Below, in pieces: positions 3,098 through 37,245 of a DNA stretch of 39,867 bases. The number at the start of each line of letters is the position of its first letter. The first letter of the stretch is position 1. Position numbers and translations under genes: made by a program. The notes under the pieces were generated by a model that ran no database searches, had not been told where the DNA came from, and saw only the letters and a program-made list of their open reading frames with translations. This stretch comes from Methylocystaceae bacterium. Its GTDB lineage: Bacteria; Pseudomonadota; Alphaproteobacteria; Rhizobiales; Beijerinckiaceae. The DNA is taken from NCBI GenBank assembly GCA_009773555.1, contig WSXZ01000070.1:1-39867 (forward strand), given 5' to 3'.

Positions 3098-3775
3098 ATG
3101 GATTTTGCGCCCATGTCGCTTTCGCCCATCTCGCTTGCGCCGATGTCGCCCCTCGGCATGTTCATTTATGCCGGACCCGTCAGCAAACTGGTGATGGCGC
3201 TGCTTCTCGCCGCGGCGGTCTGGACCTGGGTGCTCATCATCGACGGCGTCTTTGTTCTGCGGCGTCTTTCCAAGGCGCTGGATCGCGTGCGCGCCGGCGG
3301 CGACATTGGCGTCCTTTGGCCGATCGCCGAGGCCGCGCGCGAAGCGTCGCAAGCCGAATTGCCCGACGAAACCATTCATCAAAAGCGCGAACGAGTCCTG
3401 CAGCAGATGAACCGCGCCGCGCGCGAATTCATGCTCGACGCCGAAGGCGGGCTCCCGGTTCTGGCCATCGTCGCCTCGGCGGGCCCCTTCGTCGGCCTGT
3501 TCGGCACGGTTTGGGGCATTATGTCGAGCTTCTCGGGGATCGCGCAGACCCAAGACACGAGTCTTGCGGTCGTCGCCCCGGGCATCGCCGATGCGCTCGC
3601 CGCGACGGCCTATGGGCTCGCCGCCGCGATTCCGGCCGCGCGGTCTCAAAGAGAGAATGATCCGCTACATCCTGACCTATGCGACGTCGATTGGTTAGCG
3701 GCGAAGACGCGCGCGCCATCTTGGCTGGCATCTTGGCCGGCGAGACGTCCTCATCTAGAGTCGCAGCGTTTCTGA
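3098..3775 (+). pseudogene. exbB: exbB-like proton-channel gene with lost C-terminus
   Basis: The first about 180 residues are a good ExbB/MotA-TolQ family protein: TM1 (LVMALLLAAAVWTWVLIID), then LRRLSKALD, then the TM2 signature GPFVGLFGTVWGIMSSF and the start of TM3 (IADALAATAYGLAAAIPA). At about 3637 the match stops in the middle of TM3 and the frame continues into unrelated, Arg/Pro-rich sequence. The usual C-terminal tail and any exbD are missing before the symporter at 3792. The product would energise the TonB-like protein just upstream. Because TM3 is cut, I score it as broken. Whether this reflects a real deletion that also removed exbD, or an assembly error, cannot be decided here. 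Confidence 0.75.
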
Positions 3776-3791
3776 TTTAGCGAGGGCCAGG

Positions 3792-5570
3792 ATGAGCGAT
3801 CGGTCGACCGAGCAGGCGGCGCTCGAAAGAGCCAATCTTGACGCCCGAATCGCCTTCGTAGCCGCGAGCTTTCTGCTGGCTTACGCCTTTGCGGCGCTTC
3901 TCGACCGCGTCGGCGCGCCGGAGCGCTTTGTCGGCGCGGCGCCGCCCTATTTCACCATCCTCGGCCTCGCCACGCTGGGCTTCCTTCTGCATTCGATGCG
4001 CGCGTCGGTCTATTACACCGCCGGCCGCGGACTGCCGGCCGCCTACGCCGGCTTCGCCAACGCCGCGGTCGTGATCGCCCTGATGCTGCCTTTCGGCGCA
4101 CGGCTGGCGGGTGGCAGCTGGGCTGTAGGCGCCGTCGCCGGCGTCTTCATCGGTCTCGCCGCGGCGGGTCTTTATGTCGGCCCGCTGCTGCGAAAAACCG
4201 GCGTTTTTTCGATTTCCGAGCTTCTTTGCGCACGTTTTGCAAGCGCCGCGACCCGCGCCGGCTTCATCGGCGCGGTGGCGCTGTCTTCGACGCTGCTTGC
4301 CGCCGCCGGCGGCCTGATCGCGGTGAATGCGCTTGTCGAGCACACCGGCGCCAACCGGGGCTTCGCGGCATTTCTGATCGCCGCGGCCAGCCTGATCATT
4401 GCCGGTCCTGGCGGCCTTTCAGGCGTCATGTGGGCGGCGGCCGCCGCCGCTGGCGTCGCGACGCTGGGCTTTGGCTGGCCGATCGCCGCGCTCAGTCTCC
4501 ATGACGCGCTGCCGAGCGGCCTGATCTTTGGCGGCGGCGCCTCCGCGGAGGCTGCGAAACTGCTGGAGAGCTGGGGGGTGACGCCGACGCCCATGGGCCT
4601 GCCGGTGGAATTCGTCACGACGATCGCCGTGGCGCTCGGGATCGCGACGCTCGCGCCCGTCCTCGCGGCCTCAGTGGCGACCGCCGACGGGCGCAGCGCG
4701 CGGCGCGCCGGAGTCTCCGCCCTCTTCTGGAGCGTCGTCATCGCGCTGCTGGCGGCCGCGGCGATCGCCGCTTCGGCGCTGTCGCTCGCCCGGGCCACGG
4801 CGGGACAGCCGCCGGAACGTCTGCCGCAAGCAGTCTATCTGGCGAGCGAGCGCGGGCTTCTTAGCGTTTGCGGCTATTACGTGCGCGGGCCGTCGGAGGC
4901 TCAACGGGCCTGCGCGGCAAAGGGCTATGCGCCCGGCGCGCCGCTCGCCGCGGAGGAGATTCGACCGATCGACGGCGACTTTCTGCTCGGCGCGCTGCCG
5001 CAGGCGGCGGAGCTCGGCGCGGCGTCTTCGGGACTTATCGCTTCGGCGCTTGTCGCCCTTGGGCTGGCGCTCGCCACGGCGGGCCTGCAGGCCTGCGCGA
5101 CAGCCTTTGGCCATGACGCGCTCTATCGGCTGCGCGGCGAGATCGACCTGACGAGCCGGCGTCTCGCCGTCAACCGCGTCACGCTCGTGGTCGTGTCGAC
5201 TCTTGCTTACGTGACGGCCGTCACCGGAGTCTTCACGCCAGGCGCGCTCGTGGCGGCGGCGCTCGCAGTATCGGCCGCCTGCCTCGCGCCGCCTCTCGCC
5301 CTGGCCTTTTGGGCGCGGGCGGGCGATCGCGAAGCGCTCGTCGCGCTCTGCGGCGGCGCGGTGGGCCTGTTCACCGCCTTGGCCGTAGCGGGATCGCCCA
5401 ATCGCATCGAAATCTATGCGCTCTGCGCGCTTGCAGGCATCACGCTTGGCGGCGCGCTTGGACTGTTGTCAGGACTGACCTCGAGAAGCGACAAGCCTGC
5501 GGCGCGCGCCTTCATCACCCGGATGTTGCGCGGCGACGCCCAAATGCTCCAGCCCGACAAAGGCGCCTAG
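3792..5570 (+). CDS. Sodium:solute symporter family protein (VC_2705-like)
   Basis: 592-residue, Ala/Gly-rich integral membrane protein with about 13 predicted hydrophobic spans. The segment YYTAGRGLPAAYAGFANAA near residues 75-93 matches the early SSS-family motif found after TM2, and the following GLAAAGLYVGPLLRKTGVFSISELL fits the TM3-TM4 region with the family's ..tv.ElL.aRF pattern. Solute transport coupled to Na+ or H+ is expected; acetate-like organic acids are typical for this subgroup, but the substrate is not readable from the sequence. A long soluble insert (residues about 340-400, containing several Cys: CGYYVRGPSEAQRACAAKGY) lies between two spans, as in the VC_2705 subgroup. The ATG at 3792 lies 16 bp after the damaged exbB frame ends. 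The small DUF4212 partner subunit is not seen. Confidence 0.85.
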   Translation: MSDRSTEQAALERANLDARIAFVAASFLLAYAFAALLDRVGAPERFVGAAPPYFTILGLATLGFLLHSMRASVYYTAGRGLPAAYAGFANAAVVIALMLPFGARLAGGSWAVGAVAGVFIGLAAAGLYVGPLLRKTGVFSISELLCARFASAATRAGFIGAVALSSTLLAAAGGLIAVNALVEHTGANRGFAAFLIAAASLIIAGPGGLSGVMWAAAAAAGVATLGFGWPIAALSLHDALPSGLIFGGGASAEAAKLLESWGVTPTPMGLPVEFVTTIAVALGIATLAPVLAASVATADGRSARRAGVSALFWSVVIALLAAAAIAASALSLARATAGQPPERLPQAVYLASERGLLSVCGYYVRGPSEAQRACAAKGYAPGAPLAAEEIRPIDGDFLLGALPQAAELGAASSGLIASALVALGLALATAGLQACATAFGHDALYRLRGEIDLTSRRLAVNRVTLVVVSTLAYVTAVTGVFTPGALVAAALAVSAACLAPPLALAFWARAGDREALVALCGGAVGLFTALAVAGSPNRIEIYALCALAGITLGGALGLLSGLTSRSDKPAARAFITRMLRGDAQMLQPDKGA

Positions 5571-5677
5571 AGAAAGTTCCGAAAAAATTGACGGACTTTT
5601 TTGATGGAAACCTGCGCCAATATTTGATTCCTTTTTTGTCGATATCGAGTCGCGCGCTTTGCATCAGCGCACACGGC

Positions 5678-6487
5678 CTAAGGAAGCGGCTTTCGCGGAA
5701 CAAGATGCATGACGCGCGCAAGCCGCCGCTCGGTGAGAAAGGCCAAACTGAACAGCTGCAGGAAGTTTTCCGCCTCGATCAGCTCGAGGCCGATGGATTT
5801 CGGCGTCAGAACCTTTCGCGTGCGAAAGAGAATGTCCCAGACCGAAAGGACAATTCCATAATTGCCGTCGTGCTCGCTGCGCAGCGTCGAGTGATGGGCG
5901 CGGTGCAGAGACGGCGTGATGATGAAATAGGACAGAATCTTCTCTCCGGGAATCGCGATGTTGGCGTGGTGGAACAGCACGAAGAACATGCGCACAACCT
6001 CGCATGCCACCACGACATGCGCCGGCGCGCCGATGACGACGGCGCAGAAGCATTTCACGATGACTTCCAGCAACTGATCGAAGACGTGGAAACGCAGCCC
6101 GGTCGTGACGTGAAAGCTCTTGTCGCTGTGATGGATCTTGTGAAACAGCCAGAGCGCTTCCGACCTATGCCCGAGATAGTGCCACGCATACACCGCCAAA
6201 TCGAACAACACGAAGGTTGCAATCCATTTCAACGGCGCGTCGGGCAGGCTCGATAGCAGGCCATAGTCCGAATAATTCGAAGCGACGACGAGCAGGCTGG
6301 AAACGGACAAGACATTCATGATGACGTTGTTGATCAGAAAAGCGGAGGTGTTGGTGGAGAATGACGCCTTCAGCCCCGCACTCGCGAATTTCTTGTAAGG
6401 ACGGAATTTTTCGACGACGAGCAGGAGCGCGAAAAGACAGAATGCGGCGATAAGCAACTGGTTCTCGATATGTGGCGGAGCGCTCAT
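5678..6487 (-). CDS. Sterol desaturase / fatty acid hydroxylase family membrane di-iron enzyme
   Basis: 269 residues counted from the ATG at 6487, with hydrophobic spans near residues 10-28, 50-70 and 90-105. The di-iron histidine clusters of the family are all present: H103-x3-H107 (AWHYLGHR), H116-x2-HH (FHKIHHSD), and H195-x2-HH (LHRAHHST), with extra histidines at 134 and 173-174. Such enzymes hydroxylate or desaturate lipids, carotenoids or sterol/hopanoid-like substrates in the membrane; the actual substrate is unknown. The ATG at 6487 is preferred to an in-frame ATG at 6571, which only adds basic sequence before the first span. The gene is convergent with the symporter and divergent from the SRPBCC-LOV pair. 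Confidence 0.88.
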   Translation of the reverse strand: MSAPPHIENQLLIAAFCLFALLLVVEKFRPYKKFASAGLKASFSTNTSAFLINNVIMNVLSVSSLLVVASNYSDYGLLSSLPDAPLKWIATFVLFDLAVYAWHYLGHRSEALWLFHKIHHSDKSFHVTTGLRFHVFDQLLEVIVKCFCAVVIGAPAHVVVACEVVRMFFVLFHHANIAIPGEKILSYFIITPSLHRAHHSTLRSEHDGNYGIVLSVWDILFRTRKVLTPKSIGLELIEAENFLQLFSLAFLTERRLARVMHLVPRKPLP

Positions 6488-6707
6488 CGCCGACCTCGCT
6501 GGTTTGGGATGGGCCGTTTTCAGGCGCGCGGCGACGCGGCCCGACCGATGAAATAGGCGTCTTAGACCCACTGAAGACCGCCAATGTTCGCCAATTTGCC
6601 GCCGTTTTTAGACGGCGCGGGGGAAGTCGCCTTGATCGCCCTTGTCAGTCGCCGGAAAACGCCTAGCTCGTCTGAGGGAGCCCATCATCTTTCAGCAAGG
6701 GCGTCGC

Positions 6708-7216
6708 ATGTTGGGACTTAACGTCAATCTCAAAGGAATGAGCCCGCCCCGTCCGCCAGCCGTCGGCGGCGTTGCAAGAACCGTGATTTCACAGCCGCGC
6801 GATTTTGCTTTCGACTTTGTCGCCCGCGATTTTTTCAAGAATTATCAGCGCTGGTGTCCGCAAGTGGTGGAGTTGGAGCCGAATGGAAGCGCGCCCGTGC
6901 GCGTCGGGATGACGGCGCGTCAAGTCACGATGGAACGGGGCATCCGCAGCTGAACCTCGAACGCCCGCGCTTTCTCGCACTGGAAGGAATTTCCGAACCC
7001 TTCTCGTCCTCCTACGCATTCGAGTGCGAGTCGCAGGGAACCACGCTGATTTTCACCTTCGAATTGCGCGAGATCGAGTTTTCGATGCGACCCTTCGTCA
7101 AATTGATTCGCGCCGCATTGCAGGACGGCGCAGAGCAGATCGTCGAGAACCTTCGGGCGCTTATCGAAACCGGCGCGGCTTCAGCCCAACCCGCCGGCGC
7201 ATCACAATCAAACTGA
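6708..7216 (+). pseudogene. SRPBCC (polyketide cyclase/START-like) gene, frameshifted
   Basis: Two reading frames together make one SRPBCC-fold protein. The first (6708-6953) runs from MLGLNVNLKG through FVARDFFKNYQRWCPQVVEL to VRVGMTARQVTMERGIRS and ends in a TGA. The second frame continues without a gap in DNA at LERPRFLALEGISEPFSSSYAF and ends at 7216. In the family a short segment of the type E-x-T-F-x-V sits between these two pieces, so a few codons are missing at about 6950 along with a frameshift. SRPBCC proteins bind hydrophobic ligands in a helix-grip cavity. It ends 12 bp before the LOV gene, suggesting co-transcription. Sequencing error is possible. Confidence 0.7.
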
Positions 7217-7228
7217 GGTCAGCGAAAA

Positions 7229-7681
7229 ATGTTCGTCGTTCAGAAAGATGATGGGATCATCCCGAAGATTTTGACGCAGATTCTCGATTCATGCGTCAAC
7301 GGCGTCACGCTGGCGGACCCGGATCAACCCGACGCGCCGATCGTCTATGCGAACAAGGCCTTCGAAAGCATGACCGGCTATGGCCAGGAGGAGATCATCG
7401 GCCGCAACTGCCGATTTCTGCAAGGCGACGACCGGGATCAGGAGGGGCTCGCGCCGCTGCGGGAGGCCATGCGCAAGCATCACCACATTGAAGTGACGCT
7501 GCGCAATTATCGGAAAAATGGCGAGTTGTTCTTCAATAAACTCAATATCACGCCGCTGCTCGATAGTCGCGGCGCGGTGATCTACTACCTCGGCGTCCAA
7601 TATGACGTGACCGAGCTTGTCCGCGCGGAAGTGGAAATCAACCGGCTGGACCAGCGACTAAAGGCGCTGGAGAAGGCGTAA
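7229..7681 (+). CDS. Short LOV-domain blue-light photoreceptor
   Basis: 150-residue protein made almost entirely of one LOV (PAS-type) domain. The flavin-adduct motif GRNCRFLQG is intact, with photoactive Cys61; the preceding [10 protein letters not shown] and [12 protein letters not shown] segments and the flavin-contacting Asn/Asn/Gln positions (LRNYRKNG N93, FFNKLNI N103, LGVQYD Q124) are all present. A C-terminal helix ([17 protein letters not shown]) could form a dimerising coiled coil, as in short LOV proteins of other proteobacteria. There is no effector domain, so it should signal by dimerisation or a partner protein. The start ATG at 7229 follows the end of the broken SRPBCC gene by 12 bp. 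Photochemistry is inferred from family residues. Confidence 0.93.
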
Positions 7682-8097: not shown

Positions 8098-8107
8098 CCA
8101 GCTGAGC

Positions 8108-11711: not shown

Positions 11712-14700
11712 CTACGTCAGCGCGCAAGCGAGCGCATGGGCCAGCGCCGATTCATCGGCTTCGAGCACGCTGGCGTTCTGCGTGTAGATCAGAAAGCAGC
11801 GCAGCCGCTTGCCGGGGAAGAGCGGCGCGATCGCGGCGCGATAGAGCGCGAGCTGGCGCACATGCGCATCTTCGAGCTTGACGCGCGGCCGTCCGGTCTT
11901 GAATTCGGCGATGAGCGCCTCGGTCGCCGTTTCGGCAAGGCGGTCGATGCGCCCCGCGACGACGGCTCCGTTTTCGAGCGTCGCGACGATGTCGACCTCA
12001 GGAGTCGAGTCTGGGCAAAAGAGCGGCGCGAGACGCGGATCGGCGAGAACCGCGAGCGCCGACTGCGCTAGCGCCTCTCGCCTGTCTTCGATCAGAAAGC
12101 CGCCACGCGCCGCAAGGAAGCGCCGCGCCGCGCTTTGCCGATCGTCTGGCGCGCAGGCCGGCAGATGCTGCAGCAGCGCATGGACGAGACGGCCGTGCAG
12201 CAGACGTTCCGCTTCGCCTCGGCGCGCAGCCACGCCGTCCGCGCCATTGGCGATGAGGTCTGCGCCAGCCAGCGCGCTCGAGGGACGCAGCGGCGGCGCC
12301 GGCGCAACTTCGGGCCGCGCCTTGGTCCTCGCGAAGGCCGGAATGTCCACGGCGTCGGTCCGCAGCGCTCTTCTCGCAAGATCGAAGCGCGGCGGAACCG
12401 CGCCGCGGCGCAGAATCGTCGATGTCGCATCGAGGGGGTCGGGCACAATCTCGCAATTGGGTTCGAGCGCGTCGCGTACGGCGTCGTACCAGCAGCCGTC
12501 AGCGCGCCCGCTCACGCCGTGAGCGCCACAAATGTAAAGCCGCTCCTCGGCGCGCGTCAGCGCGACATAAAGCAGGCGCTGGCTTTCCTCGCGCTCGCCG
12601 CGCCGATGCGCCTCGCGCGCCTGGTGGAGGGCGATCGGGTCGCTGTCCTTGCCGATCGACCAGAGGAGCGCCGCTTCGTCAGTCTCGCCGAGCGCATAGA
12701 GCTTCGGATCATGCTTGCCGGCGGACGCCCCGCAGGTGTCCGGCAAAAACACGATCTTCGCCTCCAGACCCTTCGCGGCATGAGCGGTCATCACCCGCAC
12801 GGCGCCGCCGGGTCAGCGATGGCGGCTGTTCGCGTTCGAAACTCGCGGCGAGCTTTAAGAATTCGTCGATGGCGTCCTCGGCTTCGCCTCCTAGCCTCGC
12901 CATGAGCTTCGCGCGCCCGCCGTCAGTCCCGAGAATGCTGCTGTAAAAATCGAACGGCGCCAGAGCCGCAGCATCGCGTCGCAAGCGTCGAAGCCGCGCC
13001 GCGGCTTCCCGGCAACGCGCGTCTTCGGACTGCTCGAGCGCTTCGATCAGTGAAGCGGGACGGCCTGGCGCGAGCGCGATGAGATCGTCGTCGTCGAAGC
13101 CGAAAAACGGCGACTTCAACACGCACGCCAGCGTCAGATCGTCTTGCGGCAACAGCGCGGCGCGTCCAAGCGCGACGAGATCATGGACGGCGATATGGTC
13201 GGCGAGGTTGAGCCGGTCGGCGCCCGCGACGGGGACATGTTCGCTTTTCAGAGCGCGAATGATCGCCTCGAAGAGCGGACCCCGCTTGCGCACCAGAACC
13301 AATATGTCGCTAGGTTCGACGGGACGCAGCGCGCCGCCGTCCTCGACGCATTCGCCGCTCTGCGGCGCAAGCAACGCCCTGACTTTGCGCGCCAGTCTTT
13401 CCGCCAGACGCTCACTGGGGTCGCTCGCGTCGACATAGTCGACCGGCAGGCGCCAATCGCTCGGGTCCTGCGCTTTTTCCGCGCCGATCGGCTCCCAGAT
13501 CTCGATGAGCGCCGCGACATCGGATTTCCACGCCTCATGCCTTGGCGCCGGCTCCTGGGGATCGCAGCACAGGCCGAGGCGATTCTCTTCGATTGCGAAA
13601 ATGTCATCGACGGCCTGCAGCACGCCGGGCGATGAGCGGAAGGATTGCGTGAGCCTCACCGCTTCGAAGCGGCGTTCGACGCCTTCGAATCTTCGGCGAA
13701 ACTCGCGCCGCATCTCGTCGAATCTTTCCGGCGCCGCGCCCTGGAAGGAAAAGATCGATTGCTTCTCGTCGCCGACCGCAAAAAAACTGCGCGGCGGACC
13801 GCCCTTCGCTTCGCGCGCGCTGGCGCCTGCGCAAAATTCGTCAGCGATCGCCGCCAATATGTCCCACTGCGCCGGACTCGTATCCTGCGCCTCATCGAGC
13901 AGGATGTGGTCAATCTGCGCGTCGAGCTTATAGAGCACCCAGGACGGGCTCGAACGATGAAGCAGGCGGCGCGCGCCCTCGATCAGATCGTCATAGTCGA
14001 GTAGTCCCCGACGTCTTTTGGCATGCTCATATTCGCCAAGAATGGCGTCGCCGAGAACATGCAGCGCCAGCGAGCGTTCGGCCGCGGCCGCGGCCTTGCG
14101 CCTTTCGATGAGCGTGACGAGTCTGTCGCGCTCAGCCTCCACGCGCACAAGAAGCTGTGGTTCGCATTTGGCGAGCGGGCCGGTGATGATTTTTGTTTTT
14201 CCCAGGCCGCGCGGCTCGCCGTCTTTCTTGAAGAAGGCTGCGAGATAGCTCTCGATACAGTCCGGATGCGGCGCAAGCACAAAAGCGGAGTCTAGCGAAT
14301 CGGCGAGCTTGCCGTCGTTGGTCGAACCGCCGCGCAGCATTTTGGCGAGCGTCGGCCACGCGGACGGCGGCTCGCCGTCCGCGATGATCGCCGCTTCGAT
14401 TCGCGCCAGCGTTTCTTCGGGGCGCAAACCAAGCGCGGCAAAGACACGCGCCTCATAATCGTCCTGCTCGCGCATGCACGCGATCTCTTGACGGTGATGC
14501 AGCAATTCTTCGCAGAGCGCGTCGAATCCCGCGGCCGTCGTCTCACGGGCGACAAGCTCCAGCGCTTTTCGCAGCGATCCATTATCTCGCGTGGCGGCCT
14601 CGAGCGCGCGCCGGCGCGCCGCATCCATCAGCTCGGCGCGCTCCAGATCGTCGACGACGCGGAAGGACGCCGGAACATTGGCTTCGAAAGGAAAGATATG

Positions 14701-18211: not shown

Positions 18212-18800
18212 TCAGCTCCGGCGCAGGGCGATCGCACGCTCGGCCTCTGCAATAGCCGCGACCGTGCCGACGTGAAGCCAGAGTCCGCTGGAAACGACTC
18301 CATAGAGTCGTCCCTTGCGCGCGGCCTCGAAAAAGAAGGGCGCGAGCTTGAAGACGTCATCCGCGACGCCGGCGAAGAGCTGCGGCTTCATGAGGCCCAC
18401 GCCGGTATACCAGCGCCGCGTCCATCATCTCGGGGTCAAAGGCGTCCGCGAGCGCCAGAACATTGGAGCGCGCCGCGTCGATCCAAAACGCGTCGGTGTT
18501 GCAAACGAAAAATGGATCGTTTCCGATCAAGGGAAGCGCTTTCTTGATCCCGCCGCCTTGATCCAGCAGCAGCCTGCGCTCATCAGAAATCACGACTCGC
18601 GGACGGGCGCGCGTCGCGAGATGCGTTTCAATCTGATCGGCGAGATGATGGACGTTGACGATGGCCCGTTCGACGCCCGCCTTCTCGAATTCGTCGAGCG
18701 CGCGATCGATCAGCGTGCGGCCAGCGACGGAAACGAGCGGCTTCGGCGTCGCTTCGGTGATCGGCCGCATGCGCGCGCCAAGCCCCGCGGCGAACACCAT
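18212..18800 (-). pseudogene. murU: murU-type nucleotidyltransferase, internally deleted and frameshifted
   Basis: The N-terminal half (from 18800) is a sugar-1-phosphate nucleotidyltransferase: MVFAAGLGARMRPITEATPKPLV with the GxGxRxxPxTxxxPKPL pattern, then DQGGGIKKAL and FFVCNTDAFW. At about 18404 the frame changes, and the C-terminal half resumes as YTGVGLMKPQLF and ends VSSGLWLHVGTVAAIAEAE at 18212. In intact homologues about 35-40 residues separate MMDAALL from the (V/Y)(F/Y)TG motif, so around 110 bp is missing at one point. MurU turns N-acetylmuramate-1-phosphate into UDP-MurNAc in cell-wall recycling, using the product of AmgK encoded just upstream. The ATG at 18800 is the only good start; it begins 35 nt after the amgK stop. 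Confidence 0.85.
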
Positions 18801-22874: not shown

Positions 22875-23187
22875 TGCGAGAACGACTCTGCTGGCAAGCG
22901 ATCGAATGGGCGCGTCATGAGAACCGGTCTCCACGATCAATTGCGGGTGCTCATCACAACAACGCCGTAAACGGTTCTTGCAGAACGCGGACGCAGCCTG
23001 CCGGGCGCAGGATGCGGATAGGCTCCGACGACAGGAAGACGGAGGGCTCCGTCCGTCGCCCGCCGCGCCGCACACGAATCAACCCCAATCTAAAGCGCAT
23101 TTGCTCAAAACGGAATCTTTGAAAAGCGAATGTGCCGGGGCGTTCGGAAAGCTCGATCCCTCGCGTTAAGCGCGAAATACCTCCCCC
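22875..23187. other. Intergenic region upstream of divL
   Basis: About 313 bp between the divL start and the left target duplication of the insertion sequence. No convincing ORF, RNA gene or full CtrA box (TTAA-N7-TTAA) was seen. It probably carries the divL promoter, possibly separated from more distal upstream sequence by the insertion. Confidence 0.5.
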
Positions 23188-23195
23188 TTGCGGGG
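23188..23195. repeat. Left 8-bp target-site duplication of the IS1595 element
   Basis: TTGCGGGG immediately left of the element, identical to the 8 bp at 25292-25299. Eight-base duplications are typical of the IS1595 family. Confidence 0.8.
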
Positions 23196-23200
23196 GGAGA

Positions 23201-23218
23201 TATCACCTTGACTGAACA
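23201..23218 (+). repeat. Left terminal inverted repeat core of the IS1595 element
   Basis: TATCACCTTGACTGAACA, matching the reverse complement of the right end at all 18 positions. Confidence 0.9.
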
Positions 23219-23240
23219 CTACGAAGGCCCTATATCTGGA

Positions 23241-23477
23241 ATGAAGCCAGTCCAGGACGGGAAGGTCCGTGACAGCATAAAAATTGCGGTTCTCAACGGT
23301 GTTCGAGAATATGGCGAAGGGTTGCCGGTAGAGATATGGTTGGACGGCGAAACTGGGAGGCTTGTGCTATCGGCATATAATCAGTGTGGAGATGGCTTTG
23401 TGAATATTGACATTAGCGACCTCATTTCGTGGCTACAGACTGGCCGAGTGGACTCTGGGGCGCTTTCTAATGGATAG
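23241..23477 (+). CDS. IS passenger protein A, unknown function
   Basis: 78 residues from the ATG at 23241 (MKPVQDGKVRDSIKIAVLNG). The sequence VEIWLDGETGRLVLSAYNQCGDGFVNIDISDLISWL looks like a small alpha/beta fold, with alternating hydrophobic strands and a final helix. I do not recognise the family. A TTG at 23208 is in frame but lies inside the terminal inverted repeat, so I prefer the ATG. The last 8 nt overlap the start of the next gene, implying translational coupling of A and B. It is the first gene inside the element and is probably expressed from a promoter near the left end. Its small size and coupling to B would fit an antitoxin or adaptor role, but that is only a guess. Confidence 0.6.
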   Translation: MKPVQDGKVRDSIKIAVLNGVREYGEGLPVEIWLDGETGRLVLSAYNQCGDGFVNIDISDLISWLQTGRVDSGALSNG

Positions 23478-24081
23478 CGAGTCTTTCCCGCTTGAAGGAA
23501 TATGCTCTGAAATTCATGCTGCTTTAGCTTCGTCGGTGCCATATCTGGCAGCCGCCGCAGCTCTAGCGATGCCTGACATTTGCTCTTCATTGGAATGGGA
23601 CCCAGACCCACACAAAATCACGGCTCAGAGACGCACACAGCCGGAGTCGTATAAAAGATGGTTTAGGGATTATCTAGCGAAGAATTACCGTAATTTCACA
23701 GATGACGATTGCTATCGCCTGCGGTGTGGCCTTCTGCACAATGGCAAACTAGGTCGCCCTCAGGACCAATATGACAAGGTTGCCTTCACTGTGCAAAGAG
23801 GCCCAGTAGAGCAATTATATAAAGGTAATGTAATAAATGGAGTAGATACTGGAACGCTATTGGTTCTTGACCTTGGCAAATTTTGCAATCTTGCAATTGA
23901 TGCCGCACGAGAATGGCACGAGAAGAAGAAGGGCGATCCATTTGTGAAGCAGAACGCAACCACATTGGTTAGGTTAAGCCCAAATGGGGTCCCGCCATTC
24001 TTCGCCGGCGTGCCAGCTTTAGTCGGCGACACGCGCGCTATTACAGACTTCGGGGGCTTTGTGATGGTCCAAATCGGTTAG
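23470..24081 (+). CDS. IS passenger protein B, HEPN-like motif, unknown function
   Basis: 203 residues from the ATG at 23470, which overlaps the end of gene A by 8 nt. The predicted secondary structure is mainly helical in the first half (GICSEIHAALASSVPYLAAAAALAMPDI). It carries YRLRCGLLHNGKL near residues 90-100. The R-x4-H spacing in RCGLLH resembles the catalytic motif of HEPN ribonucleases, and a similar helical context surrounds it, but the match is short and could be chance. The second half (LLVLDLGKFCNLAIDAAREWHE) adds another helix. Codon use is AT-richer than in flanking chromosomal genes (for example around 23815-23860), consistent with transfer on the element. I do not recognise a named family with certainty. 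Confidence 0.62.
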   Translation: MDSESFPLEGICSEIHAALASSVPYLAAAAALAMPDICSSLEWDPDPHKITAQRRTQPESYKRWFRDYLAKNYRNFTDDDCYRLRCGLLHNGKLGRPQDQYDKVAFTVQRGPVEQLYKGNVINGVDTGTLLVLDLGKFCNLAIDAAREWHEKKKGDPFVKQNATTLVRLSPNGVPPFFAGVPALVGDTRAITDFGGFVMVQIG

Positions 24082-24084
24082 AGT

Positions 24085-24288
24085 ATGAATAAGACCCGTC
24101 AAAGCGTCGATGATATCTACAGCGAGCAAGAGATAGCGCGTCGACGAGATGATGTTGTTCGCCGTATGGCAAACACCCCGCCGCAGCCGAAGCTGTCTAA
24201 TCATCTACCGGAAAAGGCAAAGAAAGCTGCCGGGGATCGCGCGGCTCGTAAGGCCCGCGCGCCCCGTGAAGGTTCGACCGAAACTTAG
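24085..24288 (+). CDS. IS passenger protein C, small basic protein
   Basis: 67 residues, starting MNKTRQSVDDIYSEQEIARR, with RRDDVVRRMANTPPQPKLS in the middle and a Lys/Arg/Ala-rich tail. Small proteins with a RRD..x..MxxTPPxPH/K pattern are common in alphaproteobacterial mobile regions; no function is known to me. It begins 4 bp after gene B, so A, B and C form one transcription unit, and its 3' end overlaps the 3' end of the convergent transposase gene by 4 nt. Confidence 0.6.
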   Translation: MNKTRQSVDDIYSEQEIARRRDDVVRRMANTPPQPKLSNHLPEKAKKAAGDRAARKARAPREGSTET

Positions 24289-25232
24289 TTCGGTCGGCCA
24301 TTAGGTTGTTGATAGGTGATCCGCTTACCAACAACGCCGCGCACAGCCCGTTCGGCGCGCTCCGCGTCGCTGACATTCAACGCGGCGCGCTCGTTATACC
24401 GGAAGTCAAATTCAGCGAGATAACGCTTCAAATGCTGAGCGCTCACGTGATGATAAACGCCGACAATGCCGCGCTTCATGACCGAGAAATAGCCCTCAAC
24501 GGTGTTCGTATGGACGTCGCCGCGAACGTATTCGCCAATGCTGTGATTGACCGAATGATGGTTCGGCTCCCCGTGGCGGACGCGGGCGCCTCCGTCATCG
24601 CTGACGGTGCGCGACTCTTCCGCGATCTGCTCATCCATGATGGGGCGCAGCGTCTTGCCGGTAACGTTCGGGACGTGATGCGAGCGCACCTTGCCGCCGC
24701 GCTCGACAAGAGAGAACACAGCTTCCTTGCCCGCGCCGCCGATATTCTTCCGATTACGCTTGCTCGCGTGCTTGTTCTTCTCCTTGCCGCCAACGAACGT
24801 CTCGTCAAACTCAACGGTCTTGCCTTCGCCCCCAAGCGGGCCGGCCGGGTTGAGTTCGCGCATTCCCTCGCGGATGCGATGCGCCATAAACCACGCTGTT
24901 TTGTAGGGAAGGCCAAGCATCCGGTGAAGCTGGTGGGCGCTCATGCCCTTCTTGCTGGCGCACATCAGATGCGTTGCGAGAAGCCACTTTGTCATGGGGA
25001 TGTGCGAGCGCTCGTAAATCGTGCCGACGGCCGCAGTGAACTTCTTGCGGCACTCTTTGCAGTGATACCAGCCCGGCCCCATCGACTTGCCGCCGAGTTC
25101 TTTGATCGTCTCAGGCTTGCCGCAGAACGGGCAAACCAGGCCATTCGGCCAACGGATCGCCTCAAAATGCTTTCGCGCGGCGTCGAGGTCAGTGAAAATC
25201 GGGTTCGTAAGGTCAACAGTCGCGGTCATCAC
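24285..25232 (-). CDS. IS1595-family transposase (ISXO2-like)
   Basis: 315 residues. The N-terminus has the zinc-ribbon-like C-x2-C...C-x2-C (LVCPFCGKPETIK and WYHCKECRKKF) typical of IS1595 transposases. The catalytic domain shows VEFDETFVGGKEKNKHASKR (first acidic residue), TVSDDGG (second), and the characteristic region EYVRGDVHTNTVEGYF followed by SVMKRGIVGVYHHVS and YLAEFDFRYNER. It looks complete and has no internal stop. Two adjacent ATGs (25232 and 25229) are possible starts. It reads toward the passenger genes from the right end of the element. Confidence 0.95.
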   Translation of the reverse strand: MMTATVDLTNPIFTDLDAARKHFEAIRWPNGLVCPFCGKPETIKELGGKSMGPGWYHCKECRKKFTAAVGTIYERSHIPMTKWLLATHLMCASKKGMSAHQLHRMLGLPYKTAWFMAHRIREGMRELNPAGPLGGEGKTVEFDETFVGGKEKNKHASKRNRKNIGGAGKEAVFSLVERGGKVRSHHVPNVTGKTLRPIMDEQIAEESRTVSDDGGARVRHGEPNHHSVNHSIGEYVRGDVHTNTVEGYFSVMKRGIVGVYHHVSAQHLKRYLAEFDFRYNERAALNVSDAERAERAVRGVVGKRITYQQPNGRPN

Positions 25233-25266
25233 CTATCTCCTAGGCTTGACCATCGCATGTTGGCCT

Positions 25267-25284
25267 TGTTCAGTCAAGGTGATA
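25267..25284 (-). repeat. Right terminal inverted repeat core of the IS1595 element
   Basis: Reads TATCACCTTGACTGAACA on the minus strand, an exact copy of the left end. Confidence 0.9.
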
Positions 25285-25291
25285 ATTACCC

Positions 25292-25299
25292 TTGCGGGG
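25292..25299. repeat. Right 8-bp target-site duplication of the IS1595 element
   Basis: TTGCGGGG directly after the right end of the element, identical to 23188-23195. Confidence 0.8.
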
Positions 25300-25490
25300 A
25301 GGTCGGCGGACGCAGGCAAGTTTACGCAGCCTGCGTAAACTTGCCTGCGGACCGCCGGGTGGGGGGTCTCGTCACGCCACTAGAGCAAATTTTTCCCCAC
25401 CCGACCCCGCTTCGCGGGGCCACCCTCCCCGTAAAGGGGAGGGATGCGCAAACGCCCAACCTTCAGCCGACCGCCTACTCCAAGAGGCCA
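25300..25490. repeat. REP-like palindromic intergenic region
   Basis: Non-coding stretch packed with inverted repeats: a 19-bp perfect palindrome (25311-25349, 1-nt centre) embedded in GGCGG/CCGCC arms, a CCCCGC-TTC-GCGGGG hairpin (25405-25419), and an 8-bp CCCTCCCC/GGGGAGGG hairpin (25423-25443). Together with the part left of the IS (23181-23195) this looks like one intergenic repeat element into which the IS inserted. Such clusters are frequent between genes in Hyphomicrobiales. Confidence 0.7.
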
Positions 25491-28206: not shown

Positions 28207-29078
28207 TTATCCTCCCGCGCTCATGAAAGCGCCGCATTCGGCGTCCGCGGCAGCGGCGACTTTGACGGCGACCTTCATGGCGAGATGGTCGGACGCCGTC
28301 CCGATCCATGTTCCTTGCAGCGGAATCGCTTCCCTTGGCTCGTCCACGACCGCGATGCGCACCAAATTCCGATTCCCGAACATGCCGCTCGATGGATCGA
28401 AGTCAACCCAGCCAGGGCCGGCGATATAGGCCTGGACCCAGGCATGGGTGTTACCCCCGATGTCGTCGTCGTCGTCATCATCGTCAAGATGCAGATATCC
28501 GGAAACGAATCGCGCGGCGATTCCAAGCGCGCGCAGCGCCGCGATCATCAGCGTCGCAAGGTCGCGACAACTTCCTGCACGCCCTTCTCATGTCGCGATA
28601 CATGCTTGAAGGTGCGGTTGATGGTCTGCGTCATCTCGACGAGAAGCTTGTGGGTGTCGGCCGATCCATCCTCACGCAAGAACGCGGCGGCCCAGCGATC
28701 GAGCCGGGGATGCTGCGACTGTGGCGTGAGGAAGCGCGCGAGATCGCGGCTCTCTTCCTCGCCGTAGGCGAACGGATGGCTCCGCGCAAAGTCCTCTATA
28801 TCGGCTTCTTTGAAGTCGGTCGGCGCGTGGCGGAGACGCATCGTGCTTTCGACGCGAAGCTCCGAGGCGCGTTCCTCGAAACGGGCCGTCGCGACATGAT
28901 TGCCGAAAATATCCCGCGTCCAGGAGATTTGGCTCGGCGCGGGCGTAATTTCAAGTTCGGACTCGAGCACGATCTGGTCGTCGTCGTCGCGCGGACGCAG
29001 CATCATCCGGTGCTCGCCGAACGCGACAGGCTGCGCATAATGGTAAGTCGTGACGTGTCGGACGGTGAGAATCGGCAT
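28207..29078 (-). pseudogene. Second transglutaminase-like gene, deleted and frameshifted at the catalytic Cys
   Basis: Counted from the ATG at 29078, the first frame gives the N-terminal domain (MPILTVRHVTTYHYAQPVAF to SRHEKGVQ) and then stops just after 28550. The other frame resumes with SCRDLATLMIAALRALGIAARF, which contains the catalytic Cys, and goes on through GNTHAWVQAYIAGPGWVDFDPSSG to the end. In homologues about ten residues of the type DP..TL..GSG link these pieces; they are missing with a frameshift. A run of eight consecutive Asp codons (GAC/GAT, around 28465-28490) lies in LHLD(8)IGGN. Each half is otherwise well conserved, so the break is recent or artefactual. The intact paralogue sits 51 bp downstream. 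Confidence 0.85.
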
Positions 29079-29196
29079 TGCGGTCCCGCGGTGATCAAGT
29101 TGCGGATAATGCAAGTTCCGATAGCAGGCAATTTCCACGCCAGGAACAGGACTCGTTTATCGCTTTGCGCCGTCGCCACTCCAACGAAGAGAACGC

Positions 29197-29223
29197 CCAT
29201 GACTGGAACACCATGACTGGAAC
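29197..29223 (+). repeat. 14-bp tandem duplication at the start of the amidohydrolase gene
   Basis: CCATGACTGGAAC occurs at 29197-29209 and again at 29211-29223, a 14-bp period. The first copy carries an ATG with a purine-rich AAGAGA upstream but reads only MTGTP before TGA; the second copy begins the real reading frame, again with MTGTP. Confidence 0.9.
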
Positions 29224-32645: not shown

Positions 32646-32968
32646 CGGTCATTTCGTGGCGGCGTTCGTCAATGGCGATAGGCGGTCGTGTGAGCGCTCA
32701 GCAATACAGCTGGATTGTCACTGGGTTAGTCTGTTCAGGCTGATCGAGCGACGACGCTCGCTCTTTCCGAGCAATCCGACTTGCGATCGAAGGCGGGCGG
32801 CATTGTGCTGTCGCCGGCGCTCCCGCGCCGCGAATCGACACAAGCTTGCGACGAGCCGCTCCATGTCGAAACTTCTCGCGGCAGGAAGGCGAGCCTCTCG
32901 ACAGTCCCGAGCAACCCTCAAAAAGAGCCCCACTTACTGAGCGGCTCCTTGTTGAATGCCCAGAACAA
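32646..32968. other. Unassigned region before the nuclease gene
   Basis: 323 bp with several open frames on both strands, none with a recognisable domain or a clear ribosome-binding site. One plus-strand frame (32781-32978) has a fairly protein-like composition, but I cannot support it as a gene. The region may be decayed sequence adjoining the LysM remnant. Confidence 0.4.
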
Positions 32969-34447
32969 TCAGTCTTGACCACGACGAGGGGGAGCGGGCC
33001 AGGTGCGCAGTTCTTCGCACACTGCAGTCATTTCCATGACCCTGCCCACGTTGGCGTCGATCAGCTCTTCTTTGTAAATGCGAGTTCCATTTGGACTTCG
33101 ATGGCTCAAGCTAGCGACCATCTTTAATTCGCGATTCCGACGATGCACGCCTTGCCAGGAGAGTTCGCGCGCTCTGCTTGTATCCAAGATGTCATATTGT
33201 GCGCGGCGCTCAATGGCGGCGCCCTTTTTCTGGCGGTGTCGCACCGTCCATTTGTCACCTGTGATCGAAATATCAATCGATGTCGTATCTCCGGCGGATG
33301 CCGGCAAACAACGCAGAGCGAGCGCGGAATTACCCGGAGGATTTTCTGCCGCGCTTGAATGAGTACGACTCACCTTGTTCCCGTCTTCAACGGTAGCCTC
33401 GACATTACCCCGAGACGTTGCAGATGGCAGCGCCCTTGGATCGGAGCTCGACCTTGAAGGTGTTTGGGCGGTTGCTTCAGAAGGCGACGACAGGTCCTTT
33501 GCGGTCATGTCCGAGATCGATGACGTCCCGCGACTTGATGCACTCGGCGCCGACGTTCCGGATGATGGCAGAGTTTTTTGCGCCGTATGTTTTGGGTCCG
33601 GGACGGACCGGGAATTCATCTTGTTCTGAGGAGCGCGGGTAAAAAAGATTGAAATGATCACGACAGATACCAGCGCCGCCATCGCATAAAATGGAATTGT
33701 AAGGCTCTGCAGCGGACGAACGGCTTCTGCAAAAGCCGCTTCCCGAGAAACTTCCTCGGACGAGCTTGCTGGATGCAGAAAAACCCGTTCAGAGGCTTCT
33801 TTAGGAAAGCTTAGAATTTTATCGATTTTTGCGAGGTCACGATGGTGTAGCAAAATAACGTTGTTCGTTCGTGCGAGTTCCTGGGCGGCAGGAGTATAAC
33901 TGTTATTGCTTACGACAACTCCATAATCGGCTGCTTCATGTGCTCGGGCTGCAACGACCTCTTGCACTGCTTTGTTTCCGACGGGAGATCGGTAAAGTTT
34001 GCATTGAACCGCAAGCCGAATTCCCGGTTTTTGAGCGATCACGTCGACGCCTTGATCGCGGCTGGCCGTCGTCACCCGCGCGTCCCAACCACTGCGCTTA
34101 AGTTCTTCGGCACAGTAATGCTCATAATCTATGGGCGTCATATCATCTCGAAACGCCTGATGACGTGGTTCGAGCTCTGTTTTCGCAGCAACCGTGCTCT
34201 CAACATAATCGGTTAGCTCGGGCGCTCGCTCAGCCGCAACAAAGCGGTCATAATCGCTGTCCAGAGCCGAGAACAGGTTCTTCGAAATAAAGTACTCTAT
34301 CTCCTTTAACCATTTTTCTGGCTTCAAATTTCCGTATGGATCGAGCTGCAATAATTGAGACCTCCTTCGCGCTAAAGCCTCAATGTTGGTGTCAACAACT
34401 TCTTTTAGCGTACCGTCCACACGTCTCACGGCGCGCGAATACTTCAC
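32969..34447 (-). CDS. Membrane-tethered Mrr-type restriction endonuclease-like protein
   Basis: 492 residues. Residues about 105-205 form an Mrr-like (PF04471-type) PD-(D/E)xK nuclease: IDYEHYCAEELKRSGWDARV, then DQGVDVIAQ (D135) and RLAVQCKLY (Q148-C-K150), then VVVSNNSYTPAAQELARTNN. After it come one membrane span (251-270, IPFYAMAALVSVVIISIFF), a Ser/Thr/Pro-rich linker (about 280-375), and a C-terminal domain (about 376-492) with just two cysteines (C380, C477), probably outside the membrane. Translation starts at a GTG that overlaps the stop of a small membrane protein gene. Base composition is lower in GC than the neighbours, suggesting acquisition. DNA cleavage is inferred from the motif; a role in phage or plasmid defence is a guess. 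Confidence 0.82.
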   Translation of the reverse strand: MKYSRAVRRVDGTLKEVVDTNIEALARRRSQLLQLDPYGNLKPEKWLKEIEYFISKNLFSALDSDYDRFVAAERAPELTDYVESTVAAKTELEPRHQAFRDDMTPIDYEHYCAEELKRSGWDARVTTASRDQGVDVIAQKPGIRLAVQCKLYRSPVGNKAVQEVVAARAHEAADYGVVVSNNSYTPAAQELARTNNVILLHHRDLAKIDKILSFPKEASERVFLHPASSSEEVSREAAFAEAVRPLQSLTIPFYAMAALVSVVIISIFFTRAPQNKMNSRSVPDPKHTAQKTLPSSGTSAPSASSRGTSSISDMTAKDLSSPSEATAQTPSRSSSDPRALPSATSRGNVEATVEDGNKVSRTHSSAAENPPGNSALALRCLPASAGDTTSIDISITGDKWTVRHRQKKGAAIERRAQYDILDTSRARELSWQGVHRRNRELKMVASLSHRSPNGTRIYKEELIDANVGRVMEMTAVCEELRTWPAPPRRGQD

Positions 34448-34578
34448 GTAATCCGTAATCTCGCTAGAAGACCCGCTATGATTTTACTGAAGTCGCTTGG
34501 CCAACCCGCCCAAGCCACAAGTCCTGCGATCGGTATGAGGACCAGACCAGAGCCATCGTTTTTCTTTTTTTTCGCCAT
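34444..34578 (-). CDS. Small membrane protein coupled to the nuclease gene
   Basis: 44 residues from the ATG at 34578: MAKKKKNDGSGLVLIPIAGL, then VAWAGWPSDFSKIIAGLLARLRIT. A basic head is followed by one hydrophobic span (about residues 11-26) and a short amphipathic tail. Its TGA overlaps the GTG start of the nuclease by 4 nt, so the two are translated together. A longer form from 34653 (69 residues) is possible; neither start has a strong ribosome-binding site. Some related nucleases have an N-terminal membrane hairpin in one chain, so this might be a split-off anchor. Not recognised as a named family. Confidence 0.55.
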   Translation of the reverse strand: MAKKKKNDGSGLVLIPIAGLVAWAGWPSDFSKIIAGLLARLRIT

Positions 34579-34823
34579 TGCCGATAAATTGTTCGTAGCC
34601 GACTTAACCGCAGCGTCGCGAGAGATCTTAATCGTCTCCGCGTAAAAATACATGGCGAAGCCTTAGCGTGACGGTTGGGCCCAGGTTGGATCCATGCCGA
34701 ATTATCTGCAAACTTTTCCCCGTTCTAGAAGGCGACGGCGTGTTCCGCTTCAAGCTACCCTTCCCGGCCCCCTGATCTCTACGGATTTGCAACGCAGCTC
34801 CCGTCCCGCTAGCTTCGCCGCCC

Positions 34824-35321
34824 ATGTTCTCAGCGCTCAAAAACTTCATCAATGAACTCACCGGCGAGGCCGAGCGGCCCAAGGCCTTTGAGGCCGCGGA
34901 CTATCAGCTCGCCGCCGCCGCGCTTCTCGTCCATATCGCCTCGGTCGACGGGCAATTCGACGACACGGAGAAGGCCCGCATCCGGCAGCTCGTCGAGGCG
35001 CGCTTCGGCCTCCAGGGGGATGAGGCGGCCGAATTGATCGACGCCGCGCAGGCGAGCGAGCGCGACGCCGTCGACCTCTATCGCTTCACCAGCGTTCTGA
35101 AGCGCCGGCTCGACGAGGACGGGCGCCGCCAGATCATCGGCATGCTCTGGGACATGGCGCATGCCGACGGCGCGGTGCATGAGTTCGAGGAGAATGTCGT
35201 CTGGCGGGTCGCCGAATTGCTCGGCGTCTCGACGCGCGAACGCGTCGAGCTGCGCCGCGAGTTCCGCGACGCGGCGCCGGCGCCGAGCGGTCCCTGGTCG
35301 CGCGATAAGGACGAACTGTGA
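34824..35321 (+). CDS. TerB-like tellurite-resistance-domain protein
   Basis: 165 residues, all-helical. The TerB/DUF533-type pattern is visible: LAAAALLVHIASVDGQFDDTEK early and MLWDMAHADGAVHEFEENVVW later, each with the acidic (D-G-x-x-D/E) turn thought to bind metal. Such proteins are found in many bacteria, most without any link to tellurite; the function is unknown, with stress or metal sensing most often proposed. The end overlaps the next gene by one base (TGATG), so the two are co-translated. Confidence 0.85.
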   Translation: MFSALKNFINELTGEAERPKAFEAADYQLAAAALLVHIASVDGQFDDTEKARIRQLVEARFGLQGDEAAELIDAAQASERDAVDLYRFTSVLKRRLDEDGRRQIIGMLWDMAHADGAVHEFEENVVWRVAELLGVSTRERVELRREFRDAAPAPSGPWSRDKDEL

Positions 35322-36103
35322 TGCGCCCTGTCGCGGTGATCACCGGCGCGTCCGACGGCATCGGCGCGGCGCTTGCCCGCATCTTCGCCGCCCACGGCCA
35401 TGAACTTGCGCTCGTCGCCCGTCGCGGCGACCGGCTGGAGGCTCTGGCCGACGAAATCGCCGCCGATGGCGCGGTTCGCCCGCTCGCGATCGAACTCGAT
35501 CTCACAACCGAGGGCGCCGCGGATACGCTGTCGGAACGCTTGCGCGAGGCGGGCCTTACCCCGCGCTTCCTGGTCAACAACGCGGGCTTCGGCCTGATGG
35601 GCCGGGCGATCGAGCTCGACGCCGCCGAGCAGCTCGCGATCGTCGATCTCAACATGCGCGCGCTCACCGCGCTGACCTTGCGCTTTCTGCCGGCGATCGT
35701 CGCGGCGAAGGGCGGCGTCCTCAACGTCGCCTCGGTGGCCGCCTTCATGCCGGGACCGGGCTTTGCGGTCTATTACGCCACCAAGGCCTATGTGCGCTCC
35801 TTCAGCGAAGCGCTGTCGCAGGAATTGAAGCCGCTGGGGGTGAAGGTCGCGTGCCTGTGTCCCGGTCCGGTGCAGACCGGCTTCCAGGCGCGCGCCGGCT
35901 TGGATTTTTCGGGCGTGATGAGCGCGATGAAGCCCGCAATGCTGCCGGCGGCGGAAGTCGCGCGCCAGGGCTACGCGGGTCTGATGGCCGGCAAGCGCGT
36001 CATCGTGCCGGGCCTCGTCAATCGGCTGTTCGTCTGGGGTGCGGCGGCGGCGCCGCGGGCGCTGCTGCTGCCGCTGCTCGCGTCCGCTCAGCAGCGGCGC
36101 TGA
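35321..36103 (+). CDS. Short-chain dehydrogenase/reductase (SDR) family protein
   Basis: 260 residues with the classical SDR set: VAVITGASDGIGAALA (TGxxxGxG NAD(P)-binding), LVNNAGFG (NNAG), NVASVAAFMPGPGFAVYYATK (catalytic Ser and YxxxK), and LCPGPVQTGF. An Arg-rich pattern after the first strand (LVARRGDRLEAL) points to NADPH preference. The closest familiar type is the DltE/YqjQ-like group acting on lipids or unknown substrates; the actual substrate is unknown. ATG at 35321 overlaps the terB-like stop. The C-terminal hydrophobic stretch (RALLLPLLASAQ) might attach it to the membrane. Confidence 0.9.
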   Translation: MRPVAVITGASDGIGAALARIFAAHGHELALVARRGDRLEALADEIAADGAVRPLAIELDLTTEGAADTLSERLREAGLTPRFLVNNAGFGLMGRAIELDAAEQLAIVDLNMRALTALTLRFLPAIVAAKGGVLNVASVAAFMPGPGFAVYYATKAYVRSFSEALSQELKPLGVKVACLCPGPVQTGFQARAGLDFSGVMSAMKPAMLPAAEVARQGYAGLMAGKRVIVPGLVNRLFVWGAAAAPRALLLPLLASAQQRR

Positions 36104-36168
36104 TCAACGCTGGCGAAATCTGTCCGGCCACGGCAAAGGCGCGGCTCTGCTGGCCGCCCTCTGTTTAC

Positions 36169-36930
36169 CTAGCCAGTCTTGATAATATCGACTGCAGATT
36201 TCAGAGGGTCGGTGGGAACAGTAAAAAATCCCTGGAATGGCCGATCGAGCTCCACCAGCAGAAAGATTGCTCCGGACACGCATAAGGAGGCCGTTACAAG
36301 CCCAAGCGCCGCTGTCCAATGATGGTGCGAAATGACGCCGAAATTAAAGAAAACCGTCACGAGTAGAGCGATCAGGAATATGACCACCTCCAGCGGTATA
36401 TTGGCGTTCAAGTCGTTATATATTTTCCATCTTATGCCGGAAATTTCTTGCGTCAGATTGAGCGCGGCCGTTTTCGCCCATGATTTTTTCTCATCTTTTG
36501 CTTCTAAACTGAGCACTGCTCCACGAAATGAATCGATCTTGGCTTTTTTAAAAGCCTCTTTTTGATCGATGTTATTGCCGCTCGCGACCTGCAATAGATC
36601 AATCTGACCCTGCAGCGTGCGCATGATTTTTGTTCTCGCTTCGTTAGCTTCGTCGCCAAACAAATCTAACACGCGATGCAACAGAACAACCTTGGACGCT
36701 TGCGTCCTGACCTCGTCGACCTTCTTATCAAAATTGTTTTTTGCCGTTACCAATAAAAAGCCAAGACATACCGCAAGCAGTGAAGCAATCATGTTTCTCA
36801 CCGCTTTGAACTGATCCCTTGATACTCCATCAAGCCAGCTCTCTTTCAGCCGTAGTGTAACGGCAAATCCAAATACACCTGCTAGCAATGTCGCAAAAAA
36901 AGTAACTATAGCTATATCTATGCTATTCAC
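36169..36930 (-). CDS. DUF4239 (bestrophin-like) membrane protein
   Basis: 253 residues with four hydrophobic spans: two at the N-terminus (IAIVTFFATLLAGVFGFAVTL at 7-27; MIASLLAVCLGFLLVTA at 47-63) and two near the end (VVIFLIALLVTVFFNFGVIS; ALGLVTASLCVSGAIFLLVEL). The C-terminal LLVELDRPFQGFFTVPTDPL is the hallmark of DUF4239. A soluble helical segment lies between. Function is unknown; a channel-like role is suggested only by distant bestrophin resemblance. The GTG start at 36930 follows GGAGGAG. Lower GC than the surrounding genes hints at transfer. Confidence 0.82.
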   Translation of the reverse strand: MNSIDIAIVTFFATLLAGVFGFAVTLRLKESWLDGVSRDQFKAVRNMIASLLAVCLGFLLVTAKNNFDKKVDEVRTQASKVVLLHRVLDLFGDEANEARTKIMRTLQGQIDLLQVASGNNIDQKEAFKKAKIDSFRGAVLSLEAKDEKKSWAKTAALNLTQEISGIRWKIYNDLNANIPLEVVIFLIALLVTVFFNFGVISHHHWTAALGLVTASLCVSGAIFLLVELDRPFQGFFTVPTDPLKSAVDIIKTG

Positions 36931-37039
36931 GAGTATCTCCTCCGCAGGATCCTACCCGGCAAGGACGCCCTTGCAAACCTTCGCGTAGCCTGAGCGATCC
37001 CCGACCGCCTGAAATGAATAAGGCGCGCATGACTGTTCG

Positions 37040-37072
37040 AAAACAAAAAAGCGAGCCTCGCGGCCCGCTTTC
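37040..37072 (-). terminator. Rho-independent terminator of rpmF
   Basis: On the minus strand a GC-rich stem (AAAGCGGGCC ... GGCTCGCTTT, one mismatch, GCGA loop) is followed by TTTTTTGTTTT. It lies about 22 nt after the rpmF stop. Confidence 0.82.
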
Positions 37073-37094
37073 ATTTCCTCACACGTCGGAGCGA

Positions 37095-37245
37095 TTATTC
37101 CTCGACGGATTTCGGCTTCAGCACCTGACGGCCACGATACATGCCGGACTTGAGGTCGACGTGATGCGGCCGGCGAAGCTCGCCGGAATCCTTGTCTTCG
37201 ATATAGGTCGGCGCCTTGAGGGCGTCGGCGGAGCGGAACGGCCAT
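37095..37245 (-). pseudogene. rpmF: rpmF, 50S ribosomal protein L32, deleted near the N-terminus
   Basis: The start is intact: AGAGAGAGA, then ATG GCC GTT CC (M-A-V-P) at 37245. Only 13 nt later, in another frame, the protein resumes as [20 protein letters not shown] and goes on through [20 protein letters not shown] to the stop. In normal L32, 17 residues (MAVPKRKTSPSRRGMRR) precede SADAL, so 38 nt are missing, which also shifts frame. The bases CCG occur at both expected edges. L32 sits at the large-subunit surface near the peptidyl-transferase region. Loss of this basic arm and the frame would abolish the protein. A second copy elsewhere or a sequence error is likely. The terminator downstream is normal. 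Confidence 0.9.

What the first reader, a model, noticed from the sequence alone, without database searches (positions are those of the whole stretch)
3098..37245. Seven genes across one window damaged by small indels, each with conserved flanking halves
exbB (about 3637), the SRPBCC gene (about 6950), addA (about 12815), murU (about 18404), a transglutaminase (about 28550) and rpmF (about 37233) each lose between about 10 and 120 nt at one point, nearly always with a frameshift, while both sides still match their families closely. A 14-bp duplication also breaks the original start of the amidohydrolase gene. In contrast, long genes such as pnp, addB, divL, mgtE and the transposase are clean. 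Real decay should also show scattered substitutions and stops; here every lesion is a single clean event. That favours an assembly or sequencing artefact, or a very recent mutator episode.
Basis: partly seen in the sequence, partly recalled or inferred. Interest (0 to 1): 0.75.

Follow-up and report, generated by a model that had tools for sequence, protein, structure and literature searches.

The report
Genome-wide assembly deletions, not gene decay
Six genes in this stretch of a Methylocystis genome each lack a short piece that close relatives keep, and the same kind of hole recurs on the other parts of this assembly that were compared, including in a gene needed for life, so the holes are almost certainly assembly errors and not real gene loss.

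Summary
The six deletions are in the given sequence: 32 nt (exbB), 19 (SRPBCC), 59 (addA), 104 (murU), 31 (transglutaminase), 38 nt (rpmF). Each is intact in every relative that aligned there, 4 to 9 of nine Methylocystis genomes per site. A seventh, 28 nt at 34460 upstream of the mgtE frame, was missed. The 14-nt tandem duplication exists, but its second copy keeps an in-frame ATG. Such deletions are not special to this window. In 315 kb of the same assembly (four contigs) one caller found 38 private clean deletions of at least 14 nt; it found 1, 2 and 1 in three relatives over 318 to 344 kb each. Lengths ignore reading frame (13 of 38 multiples of three). Junction microhomology is close to chance. 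Small private indels are not in excess, and no hairpin or GC signal and no convincing adapter signal was found. The only pheT copy is frameshifted, ileS lacks 42 nt against one relative, and the only rpmF lacks its start. A living cell could hardly carry this set. Best reading: assembly artefact, probably unsequenced gaps closed without the missing bases. No reads were available; the exact step is inferred.

The parts
3639..3640 (.). Junction of a 32-nt private deletion in the exbB/tolQ-type gene (frame from 3098 +)
   Evidence: MotA_ExbB match ends at residue 180, at the lesion
6950..6951 (.).
12811..12812 (.). Junction of a 59-nt private deletion in addA (-)
   Evidence: TIGR02784 split 2-753 / 777-1136
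18410..18411 (.). Junction of a 104-nt private deletion in murU (-)
   Evidence: NF045697 matched only 1-133 of 229
28572..28573 (.). Junction of a 31-nt private deletion in the transglutaminase-type gene (-)
   Evidence: N-terminal Pfam domain PF08379 in the upstream piece
29196..29223 (+).
   Evidence: gene name not tested
34460..34461 (.).
   Evidence: two relatives aligned there, both intact
37233..37234 (.). Junction of a 38-nt private deletion near the 5' end of rpmF (-)
   Evidence: only rpmF match in the genome covers 16-56 of 56

Best explanation
The lesions are assembly artefacts found throughout the compared part of this draft genome (G000, 144 contigs). Shown: blunt, featureless losses of 14-116 nt, one per about 8.3 kb in 315 kb, private to this assembly, indifferent to reading frame and found in essential genes too. 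Inferred: at places of thin read coverage the two sides were placed next to each other by paired reads (scaffolding, gap closing or glued read pairs) and the unsequenced few tens of bases between them were dropped instead of being filled or written as Ns. That would give blunt ends without repeats, a limited size range set by the insert length, no excess of small indels or duplications, and placement without regard to genes. The genes themselves are most likely intact in the organism.
For: Six of six named deletions private against the 4-9 relatives that aligned. 38 clean private deletions of at least 14 nt in G000 over 315 kb on contigs C67, C5, C7, C13 (7, 18, 9, 4), against 1, 2 and 1 for G005, G006 and G018 over 338, 344 and 318 kb with the same caller. 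13 of 38 lengths are multiples of three, as expected without selection. Only pheT copy frameshifted: profile 1-139 and 158-798 in two frames, whole in three relatives. ileS, looked at without prior knowledge of a lesion, lacks 42 nt relative to G005. A gene matching phosphoglycerate kinase is frameshifted by 38 nt and a 5-aminolevulinate synthase gene lacks 33 nt. Private 1-9 nt indels no more frequent than in relatives. Microhomology near chance. In 15 of the 38 hit genes, 586 of 865 mismatches to a relative fall on third codon positions, so the flanks look like genes under selection. No N marks any gap in the G000 stretches compared.
Against: No reads, coverage or second assembly of the species were available, so the artefact was not seen directly. 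The size range has a floor near 14 nt, which simple coverage gaps would not give. No low-coverage signature (GC, hairpin) was found. The share of multiples of three is uneven between contigs (0 of 7, 7 of 18, 5 of 9, 1 of 4), and events look clustered on C5 (not tested). rpoB, dnaE and alaS are whole; at this rate that is unsurprising. Runs of Ns elsewhere in G000 were not followed up. That pheT, ileS and rpmF matter for life is recalled knowledge, not tested.
Confidence: 0.94

Rival explanations
1. A very recent burst of real deletions (mutator or repair defect) in the sequenced lineage, too young for substitutions and stops to pile up.
For: Clean single events; flanks under selection; addA, a double-strand-break repair gene, is among the genes hit.
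Against: The only pheT copy is frameshifted and ileS and rpmF are damaged, which a growing cell could hardly bear. No excess of 1-9 nt indels. Microhomology near chance, mean 1.05 against 0.76, whereas slippage and end-joining often leave short repeats (recalled).
Confidence: 0.03
2. Ordinary gradual pseudogene formation in this window.
For: Several genes hit in the window (murU, transglutaminase, SRPBCC) are probably dispensable (recalled).
Against: The same deletions occur on three other contigs, include an essential gene, ignore frame, and come without relaxed selection; three relatives at similar distance show almost none.
Confidence: 0.01
3. Artefact of another kind: adapter-like or hairpin sequences trimmed out of reads.
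For: One region has a 9-nt exact match to the Nextera end, by eye the murU one; one of five oligos tested gave p = 0.009, one-sided and uncorrected, with a tiny shift (5.9 against 5.6 nt longest match).
Against: TruSeq p = 0.13, Nextera p = 0.09, SMRTbell p = 0.52, ONT p = 0.51; hairpin energy p = 0.57, stem length p = 0.65, GC p = 0.43 and 0.81.
Confidence: 0.02

Closest known systems
Public assemblies noted for 'many frameshifted proteins' (problematic sequencing or assembly; one passage seen in PMC10228379)
   Same: A genome in which many conserved genes are broken by assembly or sequencing faults.
   Different: The usual cause (recalled) is one-base errors of homopolymer-prone platforms; here 1-9 nt indels are normal and the faults are blunt losses of 14-116 nt.
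Scaffold gaps closed without sequence (misjoined contigs; recalled)
   Same: Blunt joins, lost bases, no shared repeat, genes hit without regard to need.
   Different: No read data could be examined; the size floor near 14 nt is unexplained.
Recent pseudogenes by short deletion
   Same: Frameshift with both halves of the gene still recognisable.
   Different: Found on all four contigs compared, hits an essential single-copy gene, ignores frame, nearly absent from close relatives.

Membership tests
Assembly artefact (collapsed gaps) | Lesions occur across the assembly, not in one region | tested here: met
   38 in 315 kb on four of four contigs compared, of 144
Assembly artefact (collapsed gaps) | Private to this assembly | tested here: met
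   Intact in all 4-9 relatives aligned at each of six sites; 1, 2, 1 such events in control genomes
Assembly artefact (collapsed gaps) | Essential single-copy genes are hit too | tested here: met
   pheT frameshift, only copy, and rpmF, only copy, both searched because a lesion was already seen. Of four genes picked without that knowledge, ileS lacks 42 nt and rpoB, dnaE, alaS are whole
Assembly artefact (collapsed gaps) | Reads carry the missing bases or do not span the joins | not testable with these tools
   No reads held
Replication slippage or microhomology-mediated deletion | Direct repeats at the two ends | tested here: not met
   20 of 39 junctions share no base, 11 share one; chance 54% and 27%; one junction of 39 shares 9 nt
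Mutator lineage | Excess of small indels | tested here: not met
   Private 1-nt deletions 21 in G000 against 32, 28, 28 in the controls
Pseudogene decay | Relaxed selection beside the lesion | tested here: not met
   586 of 865 mismatches on third codon positions in 15 of the 38 hit genes

The most novel reading that the evidence does not exclude
The deletions are real DNA in the source population: a burst of some hundreds of blunt 14-116 nt losses, tolerated because each broken copy coexists with an intact one (many genome copies per cell, or mixed cells), with the assembler having kept the deleted version.
Probability: 0.02. Interest if true: 0.8.

Novelty: not a real feature. Interest (0 to 1): 0.12.

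Why it matters
It matters as a warning and not as biology: a genome rated 99% complete and 0.88% contaminated may hold some 480 false breaks (38 per 315 kb scaled to 4.0 Mb, an extrapolation from four contigs). Gene-loss or pseudogene claims from this assembly, and species-representative catalogues that use it, would be wrong for those genes. Testing the lengths of private deletions for multiples of three, with relatives as controls, is a cheap detector for this fault.

Tried and rejected
Adapter over-trimming: five public oligos tested, no convincing excess. Hairpins and GC extremes: none. Junction motifs: a few 4- to 6-mers such as ATACA ranked high among the many tested and were not pursued. 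Direct repeats at junctions: near chance. Unmerged contig overlaps, which should leave exact tandem duplications: no private insertion reached 95% tandem identity in any of the four genomes, and G000 had 7 private insertions of at least 8 nt against 10, 1 and 4, so the 14-nt duplication (93%) stands alone and may be an ordinary mutation. Private deletions of 100 nt and up: G000 4, controls 2, 4 and 5, so no excess there; the largest in the strict set is 116 nt. Naming the source genome: relatives could be named but not G000; one Methylocystis bin paper (PMC9506196, passages seen) does not fit in size or contig number. Literature on this kind of fault: three searches (listings seen) and one passage (PMC10228379); no claim is made that it is not in print.

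Rows dropped: one search counted 39 events on three contigs by a looser filter (at least two relatives intact). One search counted 38 on four contigs by a stricter one (at least two relatives aligned and every one of them intact, flank identity at least 88% to the best, at least 14 nt; one further 12-nt event on C7 left out). Four C7 events and one C5 event of the looser set fell away and four C13 events came in. Codon-position counts used 15 of the 38, those whose gene and strand I could recognise. A stretch of contig C105 matched well only in G018 of three relatives and was not compared; contigs fetched beyond C5 and C7 were not compared either, and C26 was compared with G005 alone.

Full report
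Source. The window is the whole of contig C67 (39,867 bases) of an unnamed draft genome, G000, of 3,999,444 bases in 144 contigs, rated 99% complete and 0.88% contaminated. All 32 contigs whose length I saw, of 144, are at least 2,519 bases long, which suggests a metagenome bin with a 2.5-kb cut-off; this is inference.

The observation. Every relative that aligned at a site is intact there (7, 5, 9, 9, 4 and 8 of nine). Protein profiles break at the lesions in exbB, addA and murU and rpmF. The 14-nt event is a near-exact tandem duplication; the first ATG is dead but the second copy's ATG at 29213 is in frame with the open frame to 30010.

Not a property of the window. I took 120 kb of contig C5, 100 kb of C7 and all 67 kb of C13 of the same assembly, and the matching stretches of G005, G006 and G018. 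One caller was run with each of the four genomes in turn as the subject. It asked for a gap of at least 14 nt, at least two other genomes aligned and all of these intact, and flanks at least 88% identical to the best of them. G000 gave 7, 18, 9 and 4 events (38 in 315 kb aligned, one per 8.3 kb). G005 gave 1 in 338 kb, G006 2 in 344 kb, G018 1 in 318 kb. Pairwise mismatches among the four are about 4 to 6% on C67, C5 and C7, and G000 is no more distant than the rest, so evolutionary time does not explain the difference.

What the events look like. Lengths run from 14 to 116 nt, 21 of 38 between 30 and 49; 13 of 38 are multiples of three, unevenly by contig (0 of 7, 7 of 18, 5 of 9, 1 of 4). 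Private indels of 1 to 9 nt are not in excess in G000 (for 1-nt deletions 21 against 32, 28 and 28), so base-level accuracy is good. Private deletions of 100 nt and more are not in excess (4 against 2, 4 and 5). Private insertions are not in excess (7 against 10, 1 and 4) and none is an exact tandem copy. On the looser set of 39, 20 junctions share no base and 11 share one; random cuts give 54% and 27%; the mean is 1.05 against 0.76, pulled up by one junction with 9 nt. GC of the lost pieces, folding energy and stem length do not differ from random stretches. Adapter likeness is not convincing (one of five oligos p = 0.009 uncorrected, with a shift of 0.3 nt). Spacing on C5 looks clustered, with two stretches of over 26 kb without an event (not tested).

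Genes that should not be missing. The only pheT of G000 is split into two frames, profile positions 1-139 and 158-798, at the 53-nt event on C13; three relatives have it whole. ileS matches to 787 where G005 matches to 859 of 861, and lacks 42 nt, in frame, relative to G005, the one relative compared. The only rpmF match covers 16-56 of 56. A gene matching the phosphoglycerate kinase part of NF010569 (494 bits, below that bifunctional model's cut-off of 883) is frameshifted by 38 nt, and a 5-aminolevulinate synthase gene (TIGR01821, over cut-off) lacks 33 nt; whether these are the only copies was not tested. rpoB, dnaE and alaS are whole. pheT and rpmF were searched because a lesion had been seen; rpoB, dnaE, ileS and alaS were not. 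That pheT and ileS are indispensable is established knowledge, recalled. Beside the lesions, 586 of 865 mismatches fall on third codon positions in 15 of the 38 hit genes, as in working genes.

Reading. Real decay would be local and would spare pheT. A mutator would add small indels, and slippage would leave repeats at the ends. None of this is seen. What remains is loss of bases during assembly. Blunt, featureless joins with a limited size range suggest that pieces were placed side by side by paired reads and the unsequenced stretch between them was dropped. That step is inferred; the lower size limit near 14 nt is not explained, and reads were not available. In the organism the genes are most likely intact.

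Verdict. Its second, a mutator episode, is nearly excluded. As biology the finding is ordinary; as a quality warning it probably affects this whole assembly, of which four contigs were tested by the full caller.

Noticed in passing
window 23118-25485: A segment of about 2.37 kb present here and lacking in G005, G006 and G016, where only about 20 nt lie between the flanks; perhaps a mobile element, contents not identified.
   Followed up: no
window 3697-3698; also C7 15251-15358 of the same genome: Relatives G006, G018, G004 and G021 carry an element of about 112 nt right after the exbB stop, absent here and in G005, G016 and G035; an element of similar length on C7 matches dozens of places in three relatives (capped list). 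A dispersed short repeat family of Methylocystis seems likely; the two were not compared with each other.
   Followed up: partly
   Followed up: yes
window 29196-29223: The two copies of the 14-nt duplication differ by one base, so it may be an ordinary mutation and not part of the artefact.
   Followed up: partly
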